The notes under the pieces: model-generated
Told to the model about the DNA's origin: nothing
The model's input: the letters and a program-made list of their open reading frames with translations, nothing else
Databases searched by the model: none
Made by a program: the position numbers and the translations under genes
Shown here: positions 15,899 to 19,393 of the stretch, in pieces
Layout: every line of letters begins with the position of its first letter
Position numbering within the stretch: position 1 is the stretch's first letter
NCBI RefSeq assembly: GCF_031450785.1
Contig: NZ_JARTWB010000002.1
Location: 1,612,001-1,676,000 of the forward strand
Origin: Caballeronia sp. LZ062
Lineage (GTDB): Bacteria; Pseudomonadota; Gammaproteobacteria; Burkholderiales; Burkholderiaceae
DNA length: 64,000 nucleotides
Direction of reading: 5' to 3'

Positions 15899-16954
15899 TC
15901 ACCATACGCGCAGCTTGCGCAAGAGGAAGATCGTGATGGCGGCGCAGCCCGCCATCACGCCGATGACAATCCAGAAGGAGTCGGGATTGTGCGTGCCCGG
16001 CAAGCCCGCCACGTTCATGCCGAAGATGCCGGTGAGGAGCGTCGCGGGCATCAGCAGCGCGGACATGATCGCAAGCCACAACAGCTTGCGGTTGATGTCT
16101 TCCGAGAGCAGCGCGGCGATTTCGTCCTGTAACAGCTTGGCGCGCTCGTAAAGCCCTTCGAGTCCGGCGCCCAGACCGTTCAGCACCTGAATGGCCTGCA
16201 CGAGCGCCTCCATCGAACGCGGCTCGGCCCATTCCAGTCGACGCGTGACGAGTTGCGTCAGCGCGTTGCGCTCCGGGTCGATGAAACGCTTGACCTCGAC
16301 CAGCCTGCGTCGCACGTCGCCCAGATGCGCGCGCCAGTTGCCTTGGCCGTTTTCGAGCACGCCCTCCTCCACGTCGTCGAGCCGGTCGCCGATATCGTCG
16401 ATGCGATCCGCGAAGGTTTCGTTGAGCGCGCGGATCAGGCCCGCGAAGAGATCGACGGTATCGCGAAACGTCGCTCCTTCGAGCACGGCGTGGCGCAGAC
16501 GGTCGGTCGATTGCAGCGGCCGCGCCCGCACCGTGATCATGCGGTGGCGGTCCACATAAAAGCGCAGCGCGCTCGTCGCGCGATTGACCTCGCGCACGCC
16601 GGGCAGCGCGGCCTCCGGTGCGGCGGCCACCAGTTCGAGATCGGCGACGACGCCGTACACGAAGTTCGCGCCCATGTGCACGCGCGGCCGCTTGTCCTCG
16701 CCGTTCAGGAACTCGCGGGCGACATCCGGCATCGACGTGACGCCTTCGAGCCAGCTTTCGACCGTGTCGTCGTTTGCCGAGAGATGCAGCCAGGTGAATC
16801 CGTCGCCCGCCACGGCCCGCCGCGCTTCTTCCCATGAAAGCCGCAGCGCGTCGCCGCCGGCGAAGTCGAACGCGCTGATGAATCCCGGCGGCGCCGGTTC
16901 GTCATGACCGGTGCGCGTGCGCCCGGCCGGGTCTTGTGTGCGGGTCGTATCCAA
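15899..16954 (-). CDS. zntB: CorA-family zinc transporter, ZntB-like
   Basis: A 351-residue inner-membrane divalent cation transporter. A long cytoplasmic N-terminal domain leads into a helical funnel (residues about 160-285) and two C-terminal transmembrane helices. The first helix ends with the CorA signature GMN, in TGIFGMNVAGLPG. The loop and helix content match ZntB (GMN with GLPGT downstream) better than CorA proper. ZntB is described as a zinc transporter working with a proton gradient; the substrate here is inferred. An ATG at the very start is preceded by no strong ribosome-binding site, but the length suits the family. Confidence 0.85.
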   Translation of the reverse strand: MDTTRTQDPAGRTRTGHDEPAPPGFISAFDFAGGDALRLSWEEARRAVAGDGFTWLHLSANDDTVESWLEGVTSMPDVAREFLNGEDKRPRVHMGANFVYGVVADLELVAAAPEAALPGVREVNRATSALRFYVDRHRMITVRARPLQSTDRLRHAVLEGATFRDTVDLFAGLIRALNETFADRIDDIGDRLDDVEEGVLENGQGNWRAHLGDVRRRLVEVKRFIDPERNALTQLVTRRLEWAEPRSMEALVQAIQVLNGLGAGLEGLYERAKLLQDEIAALLSEDINRKLLWLAIMSALLMPATLLTGIFGMNVAGLPGTHNPDSFWIVIGVMAGCAAITIFLLRKLRVW

Positions 16955-17070
16955 TGTTGCGTTCCTGGTGTTGCGACAATTTGCTGCCTTACGATTTCAT
17001 CGGGACACCTTTCGATTCCCGATCGACGAATCATGGCGGCACGCCCGAAGCAAGCCGCCCGTCAATCGTA

Positions 17071-17610
17071 CTAGAACTCGTAGCGTCCCAAGAAGAAGGC
17101 GACGTCGCCGTCGTTCAGGCCGGGCAGGCGCGGAATCAGCGTGCCCATCAACGAAACGCGCTTGTAGCGGATCGAACCGATGGGAAAGGCAAGCGGCAAC
17201 GGGAAATAATGCGCGACGTCGCTGCGCGCGGTGAAGCCCGCGAAAAAGCCGCCGCCGACTTGCAAGCCGCCCAGTACAGGCTTCGTGAACCACTGCCGCG
17301 CATAGCCGGCGATCGGCTCGAAGTTGTGATGCGAGTCGGAGAATGCGAAGGCGAAGAGCGCGTCCTCGTTACCGTCGGCATCGGTCCAGTGCTTGCCCGC
17401 GCCGCCGCCGTACGACCACGGATTCAGTTCCTTGCGATCCGTATAGCCGTCGATGTGCCAGCCGTAGCCCGTGATGTACAGATCCCAAGTGCCGTCGTGC
17501 GCGACGCGCATCACACGCTCGCACGCCGACGACATCCAGTCCCGCTTGAAATCGCATTGCCCCTCGTCCGCGTACGCCGCGAACGGAGTGGTGAAACAGA
17601 CGCTTAGCAA
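17071..17610 (-). CDS. pagP: Lipid A palmitoyltransferase PagP, N-terminus out of frame (signal peptide disrupted)
   Basis: The mature part is a full PagP outer-membrane beta barrel. WDLYITGYGWHIDGY carries the catalytic histidine, and FSDSHHNFEPIAGYARQW carries the Asp/Ser pair (E. coli H33, D76, S77). The C-terminus ends in GRYEF, a barrel end with a terminal aromatic. The enzyme moves palmitate from phospholipid to lipid A. In this frame the only initiator is a TTG at 17610, which would leave a truncated, uncharged leader. A good ATG at 17650 lies in another frame, separated by a run of nine A (minus strand). With eight A the product would begin MTKKRAVRAVK followed by IWLLSVCFTTPFAAYA, an ideal signal peptide. 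So the gene is either switched off by slippage, expressed by slippage, or mis-sequenced. The upstream neighbour on the same strand is a lactonase gene. Confidence 0.85.
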   Translation of the reverse strand: MLSVCFTTPFAAYADEGQCDFKRDWMSSACERVMRVAHDGTWDLYITGYGWHIDGYTDRKELNPWSYGGGAGKHWTDADGNEDALFAFAFSDSHHNFEPIAGYARQWFTKPVLGGLQVGGGFFAGFTARSDVAHYFPLPLAFPIGSIRYKRVSLMGTLIPRLPGLNDGDVAFFLGRYEF

Positions 17611-17636
17611 CCAAATCTTGACCGCCCTGACCGCTC

Positions 17637-17645
17637 TTTTTTTTT
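17637..17645 (-). repeat. Poly(A)9 homopolymer at the 5' end of pagP
   Basis: Nine consecutive T on the plus strand, read as nine A three codons into pagP on the minus strand. It lies between the ATG (17650) and the codons of the signal peptide core. It is the exact place where a one-base change decides whether start and mature protein are in frame. Confidence 0.9.
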
Positions 17646-17731
17646 GTCATTGTCGATGGACTGCGTGTCGCTGTGAAGGTGAGACGCCGCGGCGCCGTGC
17701 GACGAAGGCCGCGCGGCGCTTCGTCATGACG

Positions 17732-19072
17732 TCACGAAGGCGAGACGAACTTGAAATCGACCGGGGATCCGATCGACAACTCCTTGGGATCGGACGCCAG
17801 CTCGCCCGTCGCCGGATCGCGGCGGAAGAAATACGCGCTGTCGCTCTCCTGATTGCCGACGACGAGCCAGCGCCCGGTCGGGTCGATGGCAAACTCGCGC
17901 GGCGTCTTGCCGAGCGTCGGATAGCGTTTGAGCAGCTTCAGATGACCGTTCGCGGGATCGACGGCAAAGGCGACCAGCTGGTTTGCGTCGCCGCGATTGG
18001 TCGCGTACAGGAAGCGCCCGTCCGGCGACAAATGCAGCGCGCCGCCGCCTATCTTGCCCTTGGCGCCCGGCGCGGTCATCGGCACGGATTGGGCTTCGGT
18101 GAGCTTGCCGTCCGCGTAGTTGAAGACGAGCACGGACGCGTTCAGTTCGGTCGTCGCATAGGCATGCTTGCCGCTTGAGTCGAAGATCAGATGGCGCGGG
18201 CCGGAACCCGGCTTGACCTGGGTGTAGCGCGCCTCGGTCGGGCCGAAGAGACCGCGGCTGCCGTCTGGCGTATAGCGATAGCTGAACAGCTTGTCCACGC
18301 CCAGGTCCTGCGCGAAAAGATACTTGCCGTCCGGCGAGAAGACCGTCGAATGCACATGCGAGTTGTCCTGCCTGCCCTTCACCGGCCCGCTGCCTTCGTG
18401 ATGCACGGTGAGCACGGACGTGCCGACGTGTCCATCGGCCGAAAGCGGAAAGACCGCGAAGCTGCCGCCGGGATTCGCCGCGACCGAATAGTTGGCGGTG
18501 AGCAGATATTTCCCGTCGGGTGAGATAGCGAGATAGCACGGATCGTTGCCGTCCGACGACACGCGGTTCAGAAAGCTCAATTGTCCGCTCGCGCGATCGA
18601 AGCGAAACGCGCTCACGCCGCCGCGCTGCGACGCCGGGCCGTTGTCGCCGGGCAGCTCGTTCACCGCGTAGACGTAGTTGCGATCGCCGCTGACGACGAG
18701 ATACGACGGATTCACCGTCTGCGCCGACGCGATGCGCGTCAGCTCGCCGTTGCCGGCATCGAAACGGTAGACGTAGATGCCTTCACTTTTGCCGCTGCCG
18801 GTGTACGTGCCGATAAGCAGATCGAAGACATCGCCCGGCTTCGCGCTCGTCGCTGCCGTACCGCTCGCGGCGGTGGCGGGCGGCGTGGCGTTTCCGGGCG
18901 TCTGCGCGAACGACTGCGCGGCGGCAAGCGACAGCATCAGCGCGACGCGTCTCGCCCAGCGCGCCGGCTGCGCGCGCGTCGGTTCGATGATGCGCGCGGG
19001 CCACGGGCGAGAGAGCTGGCGCGGCGTTTGCAACGGCGCACGCATCGCGGCGCGGGAACGGCTCGATTGCAT
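17732..19072 (-). CDS. Exported lactonase-family beta-propeller protein
   Basis: A 446-residue protein with a long basic leader and a hydrophobic segment (VALMLSLAAAQSFAQ) consistent with export. A seven-bladed propeller of the lactonase family follows, starting FDLLIGTYTGSGKSEGIYVY. Repeated blade motifs include SYLVVSGDRNYVYAVNE, YLAISPDGKYLLTANY and FSPDGKYLFAQDLG. Family members include 6-phosphogluconolactonase (YbhE type), but the signal peptide argues against a cytoplasmic pentose-phosphate role. Another periplasmic lactone is more likely, substrate unknown. The start at 19072 is supported by a strong GAGGAGG ribosome-binding site. pagP follows after about 80 bp. Confidence 0.82.
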   Translation of the reverse strand: MQSSRSRAAMRAPLQTPRQLSRPWPARIIEPTRAQPARWARRVALMLSLAAAQSFAQTPGNATPPATAASGTAATSAKPGDVFDLLIGTYTGSGKSEGIYVYRFDAGNGELTRIASAQTVNPSYLVVSGDRNYVYAVNELPGDNGPASQRGGVSAFRFDRASGQLSFLNRVSSDGNDPCYLAISPDGKYLLTANYSVAANPGGSFAVFPLSADGHVGTSVLTVHHEGSGPVKGRQDNSHVHSTVFSPDGKYLFAQDLGVDKLFSYRYTPDGSRGLFGPTEARYTQVKPGSGPRHLIFDSSGKHAYATTELNASVLVFNYADGKLTEAQSVPMTAPGAKGKIGGGALHLSPDGRFLYATNRGDANQLVAFAVDPANGHLKLLKRYPTLGKTPREFAIDPTGRWLVVGNQESDSAYFFRRDPATGELASDPKELSIGSPVDFKFVSPS

Positions 19073-19240
19073 GAGACCTCCTCATCGACTGTTTGCTGCG
19101 TGTTATGGATGCGACGCGCGTTGGCGTCGCGTGACCGGCGTGTGCGGCAGCAAGTTGCGGACCGTCGCACGAAGCCTCGCATCGCTTCCGCACGCGCCCG
19201 TCTGGCCACAGAACTCTAACCAACAAAAGGAGCTGATGCG

Positions 19241-19393
19241 ATGGACATCCACGTAAGCCTCGGGCCGCTCGTCTCGCTGATTGCGGGCATTCTTATTCTC
19301 GTCGTGCCGCGCCTTCTGAACTTCATCGTCGCGATCTACCTGATCGTCATTGGATTGATCGGGCTGTTCGGGATGGGCACGACACACTTGTGA
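19241..19393 (+). CDS. DUF3096 small membrane protein
   Basis: A 50-residue, almost entirely hydrophobic peptide, MDIHVSLGPLVSLIAGILI followed by a second helix (FIVAIYLIVIGLIGLFGMG). The two helices flank a VPRLLN turn, which is the DUF3096 pattern. It has a clear AAGGAG ribosome-binding site. Function is unknown. It is divergent from the lactonase gene. It is too short for most automated open-reading-frame cut-offs. Confidence 0.85.
   Translation: MDIHVSLGPLVSLIAGILILVVPRLLNFIVAIYLIVIGLIGLFGMGTTHL

What the first reader, a model, noticed from the sequence alone, without database searches (positions are those of the whole stretch)
17600..17650. pagP is split from its start codon at a nine-A tract: candidate phase-variable lipid A palmitoylation
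Seen: on the minus strand an ATG (17650) is followed by ACA and nine A. In this frame the reading fails to join pagP. The pagP frame has no ATG, only a TTG at 17610 that leaves an uncharged, short leader. Deleting one A (A8) joins the ATG to a full signal peptide (positive MTKKRAVRAVK, hydrophobic core, AYA cleavage) and an intact PagP barrel with its catalytic His and Asp/Ser. Established: homopolymeric tracts near 5' ends drive slipped-strand phase variation of surface-modifying genes, and A9 can cause transcriptional slippage. Inference: on/off control of lipid A palmitoylation and peptide resistance. A sequencing error is the main alternative.
Basis: partly seen in the sequence, partly recalled or inferred. 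Interest (0 to 1): 0.8.

Follow-up and report, generated by a model that had tools for sequence, protein, structure and literature searches.

The report
Frame-split pagP at an A-tract
In this Caballeronia-like bacterium, the gene for an enzyme that adds a fatty acid to outer-membrane lipid A is cut off from its start codon at a run of nine A's, most likely by a recent slippage mutation or a base-calling slip rather than an evolved on/off switch.

Summary
On the minus strand an ATG (17650-17648) is followed by AC and nine A (17645-17637), and its frame does not join the PagP body (17610-17071), an intact PF07017 barrel. The genome is Caballeronia-like. Of 37 relatives compared, 28 have the same ATG in frame, 24 of them with a body that tblastn matches unbroken. 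Four have it out of frame, all with split bodies; five have no ATG at that column. The window is the only copy with an out-of-frame ATG and an intact body. Base-calling error is not excluded, but 400 kb of this assembly shows no more small frame-changing indels than two sister genomes. The run is not kept across the relatives (2 to 8 A in the 28 in-frame ones), so an evolved phase-variable switch is not supported. Transcript slippage mostly adds single A's, which does not join these frames. Best reading: a recent slippage-made OFF allele of an ordinary, often-lost lipid A gene, like the inlA A6/A7 case of Listeria.

The parts
17648..17650 (-). ATG start codon shared with most relatives, here not in frame with pagP
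   Evidence: 5' alignment and frame table
17637..17645 (-). run of nine A
   Evidence: G000:C2:1629637-1629645
17369..17650 (-). 93-aa ORF read from the ATG; no Pfam match
17611..17646 (-). 12 codons open in the pagP frame without ATG, GTG or TTG (would-be signal-peptide n-region)
17071..17610 (-). PagP lipid A palmitoyltransferase body, 179 aa counted from TTG 17610, PF07017
17732..19072 (-). upstream neighbour, 7-bladed lactonase-like protein (PF10282)
15899..16954 (-). downstream neighbour, CorA-like transporter (PF01544)
17649..17677 (-). sigma-70-like promoter match whose second hexamer overlaps the ATG; probably chance
   Evidence: 1 found in 16900-19300, shuffles mean 0.3

Best explanation
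An ordinary Caballeronia pagP carries a recent slipped-strand length change at a short poly(A) run in the Lys-codon-rich start of its signal peptide. The start codon and the enzyme body are in different frames, so the sequenced isolate makes little or no exported PagP (OFF allele). Such runs change length more often than ordinary sequence, so the state is reversible in principle, but nothing here shows that it is maintained as a switch. Shown: the frame split, the intact body, in-frame relatives. Inferred: that the change is real, recent and silences the gene.
For: The ATG is in frame in 28 of 37 relatives, including the four nearest species, which have the same ATGAC-plus-A-run layout with a shorter run. 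The body is intact and constrained: dN/dS to five relatives 0.106-0.186, among those relatives 0.063-0.18 over 10 pairs. The pagP frame has no ATG, GTG or TTG before TTG 17610. The start region is also out of frame in four decaying copies (L020, L021, L027, L028). The gene is dispensable: 21 of 58 genus genomes have no match at E<=1e-3. G000 shows no excess of small frame-changing indels (5 in 266,043 aligned coding-like bases, against 8 in 252,768 and 7 in 262,521). Precedent: inlA 5' poly(A), A6 to A7 at about 5.5e-7 (PMC2831843 section 9).
Against: No reads were available, so the run length itself is unproven. Only two A/T runs of 7 or more lie in coding-like ORFs of the 400 kb, so calling accuracy at long coding runs could not be measured. 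The base after the run also differs from the T or C of its four nearest relatives, so more than one change happened here and the place of the extra base is not fixed. G000 has more nine-A words than four of the five sister genomes counted (27 in 5.06 Mb against 13-24 in 5.5-6.3 Mb), which could mean biology or over-calling. The fifth, G041, has 70 words, many of them in runs at contig ends.
Confidence: 0.5

Rival explanations
1. Base-calling or assembly error at the A run; the isolate's gene is in frame and ordinary.
For: The body is intact and constrained and 24 of 24 relatives with an unbroken body and that ATG are in frame. The genome is in three contigs, so long reads are likely (inference). 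It has more nine-A words than four of five sisters, and at runs picked in a sister genome its runs are on average slightly longer than the third genome's (by 0.26 and 0.17 bases).
Against: No excess of small frame-changing indels in 400 kb, and none of the five found lies at an A/T run. The length differences at alignable A/T runs are small and mutual: G000-picked runs (52) exceed the others by 0.90 and 0.75 on average, G048-picked (47) by 0.79 and 0.96, G049-picked (51) by 0.33 and 0.59.
Confidence: 0.28
2. Evolved phase variation: the tract is kept as a mutable switch that turns lipid A palmitoylation on and off in sub-populations.
For: Nine A within the first codons of an outer-membrane lipid A gene. 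Long A/T runs of 5 to 8 bases sit closer to gene 5' ends in general (PMC2831843 section 6). MutS and MutL domains lie in open frames, so nothing points to a general repair defect as the cause.
Against: Run length 2-8 in the 28 in-frame relatives, 8 in only five; all nine relatives with an intact body and a run of 7 or 8 are in frame; the four other out-of-frame copies are all decayed. No within-species length variants could be sampled.
Confidence: 0.1
3. Transcriptional slippage at the run gives a minority of in-frame mRNA, so PagP is made at a low level.
For: Poly(A) runs provoke RNA polymerase slippage; tssM of Citrobacter rodentium is rescued so at 11 A (PMC4256274 passages), and frameshifts in A/T runs of Blochmannia genes may be corrected so (PMC3017870 passages).
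Against: 80% of transcription insertions add one nucleotide, and in E. coli only 3 (under 1%) of deletions began in uninterrupted runs (PMC5574713 passages). One added A does not join these frames (40 nt offset). The long run is not conserved.
Confidence: 0.08
4. Translation starts downstream at TTG 17610 (or a rarer start), giving a short, uncharged but working leader; the ATG is not needed.
For: TTG is a legal start and the body follows in frame. A promoter-like match overlaps the ATG.
Against: The leader before the likely cleavage site lacks any Lys or Arg. 28 of 37 relatives keep the upstream ATG in frame. The promoter match is near chance level.
Confidence: 0.04

Closest known systems
inlA 5' poly(A) A6/A7 frameshift of Listeria monocytogenes (Orsi 2010, PMC2831843; abstract and sections 6 and 9 read)
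   Same: Short poly(A) run in the first codons; a one-unit length change puts the protein out of frame at its start; body otherwise present; reversible in principle
   Different: There strains with each length and measured reversion frequencies; here one genome and no rates; different protein and phylum
pagP loss in Bordetella holmesii isolates (PMC5454989, passages only) and Yersinia pestis (PMC7764729, passages only)
   Same: Natural loss of PagP by a one-base or single-nucleotide change; absence of palmitate reported there
   Different: The passages name an added G and a SNP, not a poly(A) run near the start; pathogens; phenotype measured there, not here. One B. holmesii passage writes pagL where pagP seems meant
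Poly(A) transcriptional frameshifting in tssM (PMC4256274) and Blochmannia genes (PMC3017870), passages only
   Same: Frame split at a long A run in an otherwise intact gene
   Different: In tssM insertion of A rescues; here a single added A does not; no RNA evidence here

Membership tests
PagP lipid A palmitoyltransferase | PF07017 domain above its gathering score | tested here: met
   124.9 bits, cut-off 24
PagP lipid A palmitoyltransferase | His, Asp, Ser of the active site (identity as active site recalled) | tested here: met
   H52, D92, S93 aligned to 3gp6
PagP lipid A palmitoyltransferase | signal peptide in one reading frame with the barrel | tested here: not met
PagP lipid A palmitoyltransferase | palmitoylates lipid A | not testable with these tools
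   needs lipid A mass spectrometry
Slipped-strand phase-variable gene | repeat tract at which length sets the reading frame | tested here: met
Slipped-strand phase-variable gene | mutable tract kept in relatives | tested here: not met
   runs of 2 to 8 A, 8 in 5 of 28 in-frame relatives
Slipped-strand phase-variable gene | length variants within a species or culture | not testable with these tools
   one genome per species held; no reads
Programmed transcriptional slippage | commonest slip (one added A) joins the frames | tested here: not met
   40-nt offset; slip types from PMC5574713 passages
Programmed -1 ribosomal frameshifting | slippery heptamer leading into the downstream frame | tested here: not met
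   A AAA AAG is in the ATG frame, but a -1 shift goes to the third frame, not pagP's (sequence)

The most novel reading that the evidence does not exclude
In this Caballeronia clade the 5' poly(A) run of pagP works as a contingency switch, so that cultures hold ON and OFF cells for lipid A palmitoylation, useful when moving between free life and a host and when facing host peptides.
Probability: 0.1. Interest if true: 0.6.

Novelty: new member of a known kind. Interest (0 to 1): 0.3.

Why it matters
If real, it adds a frame-off pagP allele, made at a mutable run, to the known natural losses of PagP, in a genus where pagP is often missing (no match in 21 of 58 genomes). If cultures proved mixed, it would be a simple, directly testable switch of outer-membrane lipid A acylation. 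If an error, it is a caution on calling frame breaks at A runs.

Tried and rejected
First frame-break screens were too noisy to use. One search took the longest ORFs, so antisense and over-extended ORFs gave 30 to 48 'splits' in the five of six comparisons whose totals are visible (the output was cut). One search took reciprocal pairs: G000 7 of 45, G048 5 of 62, G049 3 of 51, so G000 had the highest share; all seven G000 breaks fall within the first 72 residues, where over-extended starts mimic breaks. One search (GC-pattern-filtered ORFs) gave internal breaks 3 of 219 and 4 of 267 genes for G000, 5 of 228 and 5 of 218 for G048, 4 of 270 and 1 of 216 for G049, and N-terminal ones 11 and 7 (G000), 10 and 9 (G048), 7 and 13 (G049). 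(nucleotide indels unique to one genome) was kept as the main control; it cannot see the pagP case itself, which lies before the called ORF start.

A mismatch-repair defect was considered and not supported: the MutS and MutL domains lie in open frames of 932 and 683 aa without stops. A general excess of C runs is absent (23 seven-C words in G000 against 14-48 in four sisters; the fifth, G041, has 850, many listed at contig ends, and was left out).

The protein search (56 proteins, best 81% identity) held neither the window's own product nor its nearest relatives (86-91%), so it says nothing on other strains. The plasmid collection gave no match. Literature: the searches listed no paper whose title or shown abstract start reports pagP phase variation or Caballeronia pagP; one search listed 12 of 42. 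Of the listed papers two (PMC5454989, PMC7764729) were looked into by passages and the rest were not opened. From (15 of 75 listed) four were opened: PMC2831843 (abstract and two sections), PMC5574713, PMC3017870 and PMC4256274 (passages).

Structure prediction was not run; the domain and active-site alignment were enough.

Full report
What is there. The window lies in contig C2 of a 5.06 Mb, three-contig genome whose nearest named relatives are Caballeronia and Burkholderia-named genomes. The PagP body at 17071-17610(-) is the only match to it found in the genome. It scores far above the Pfam threshold for PagP and aligns with the solved PagP chains 3gp6 and 1mm4, with the His, Asp and Ser in place (their catalytic role and the E. 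coli origin of the chains are recalled). It sits between a lactonase-like gene and a corA-like gene on the same strand. Of the 37 non-duplicate relatives, 27 show both neighbours, six only the lactonase, one only corA and three neither, partly because contigs end nearby (counted from its table).

The split. On the minus strand ATG (17650-17648) is followed by AC and nine A. The TTG that opens the PagP ORF is 40 nt downstream of the ATG, so the frames differ; the ATG frame runs on as a 93-aa ORF without a domain. In the pagP frame a TGA overlaps the ATG, and the 12 following codons hold no ATG, GTG or TTG. The TTG product would start inside the hydrophobic stretch with no basic residue before the likely cleavage site.

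Relatives. Sixty-three loci were on hand. I dropped 24 duplicates between the two collections (each the same over the 5' stretch) and L033 (only a C-terminal fragment). That left 38 rows: the window's own and 37 relatives. The shared ATG is in frame in 28 of 37; of these, 24 have a single unbroken tblastn match over the body and four (L024, L029, L030, L032) are broken or truncated further down. It is out of frame in four (L020, L021, L027, L028), all with split bodies; L021, L027 and L028 are named Candidatus Paraburkholderia (leaf-nodule symbionts, recalled). Five have no ATG at that column (L019, L022, L023, L026, L031), among them Paraburkholderia and Trinickia, which may start elsewhere. 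The window is the only one of 38 with an out-of-frame ATG and an intact body. The longest A run in the first 22 nt of the 28 in-frame relatives is 8 (five rows), 7 (five), 6 (one), 5 (five), 4 (three), 3 (five) or 2 (four). The four nearest species share the ATGAC-plus-run layout and are in frame. So the run looks less like a conserved device than a by-product of Lys codons in the signal peptide (inference).

Other long runs. The genome has 24 distinct tracts of nine or more A or T. Eight lie inside a coding-like ORF by a mechanical screen. Four of those ORFs have no Pfam match (L134, L135 and the plus-strand ORFs of L137 and L139). In the other four (lpxC, a porin, rimP, an amidase) the domain begins well after the tract and a later start is plausible. 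pagP's tract is thus probably the only one in the first codons of a gene.

Real or error. No reads were available. I compared 400 kb of the genome with 400 kb of two sister genomes. Isolated frame-changing indels of 1-2 nt in coding-like ORFs that are unique to one genome number 5 in 266,043 aligned bases for this genome, 8 in 252,768 for G048 and 7 in 262,521 for G049; none of the five lies at an A/T run. At alignable A/T runs of 6 or more the length differences are small and mutual, with a slight lean to longer runs in this genome. Against this, the genome has 27 nine-A words in 5.06 Mb, while four of five sisters have 13-24 in 5.5-6.3 Mb; the fifth, G041, has 70, many in runs at contig ends. 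Only two A/T runs of 7 or more lie in coding-like ORFs of the 400 kb, so calling accuracy at such runs could not be measured. The noisier screens are told under Tried and rejected; in one of them this genome had the highest share of breaks, all near N-terminal ends. I put error at about 0.28.

Age and constraint. Pairwise dN/dS of the body beyond the first 20 columns is 0.106-0.186 against five relatives, and 0.063-0.18 among those relatives. Two residues are changed in the window alone against seven relatives that agree (V46I, W67Y); of the four nearest relatives, two have one such change each and two have none. The body is thus constrained, and any loss is recent (inference).

How it most likely works. 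The simplest account is slipped-strand mutation at a short poly(A) run, which silences the gene until the run changes again. In Listeria inlA the same kind of 5' run changed A6 to A7 at about 5.5e-7 and A7 to A6 at about 3.9e-8 (PMC2831843 section 9). Rescue by transcript slippage is less likely, because 80% of transcription insertions add one nucleotide (PMC5574713 passages), which does not join these frames. A -1 ribosomal shift at the in-frame A AAA AAG also leads into the wrong frame. An evolved switch lacks the conservation it should show. Loss of pagP is common in the genus: 37 of 58 genomes, the own one included, have any match at E<=1e-3, several of them fragments. It is also known elsewhere: a one-base pagP difference between Bordetella holmesii isolates and the reference strain (PMC5454989 passages) and PagP loss in Yersinia pestis (PMC7764729 passages).

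Verdict. The sequence observation is confirmed; the phase-variation reading is possible but unsupported beyond the presence of the run. It is a new member of a known kind, of modest interest, settled by accurate re-sequencing of a few colonies.

Noticed in passing
L127:1501-1510 (G000:C2:110247-110256): A run of ten A sits just before the start of lpxC (A10-TT-ATG). In the 24 other genus genomes that match the pattern, the run of five or more A near that start is 5 or 7 long, in some with other bases before the ATG; 33 of 58 genomes do not match the pattern. Effects on lpxC expression are untested.
   Followed up: partly
genus-wide, loci L019-L033: pagP is lost or broken repeatedly in Caballeronia and its relatives: 21 of 58 genomes without a match, several others with split or truncated bodies, and four decaying copies out of frame at the same start region.
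   Followed up: partly
whole genome G000: Nine-A words number 27 in 5.06 Mb against 13-24 in four of five sister genomes of 5.5-6.3 Mb (G041 left out because many of its 70 lie in runs at contig ends), although MutS and MutL domains lie in open frames. Cause unknown.
   Followed up: partly
17649-17677 (-): A sigma-70-like promoter match whose second hexamer overlaps the pagP ATG, so that transcription would start in or near the A run (1 found, shuffles mean 0.3).
   Followed up: no
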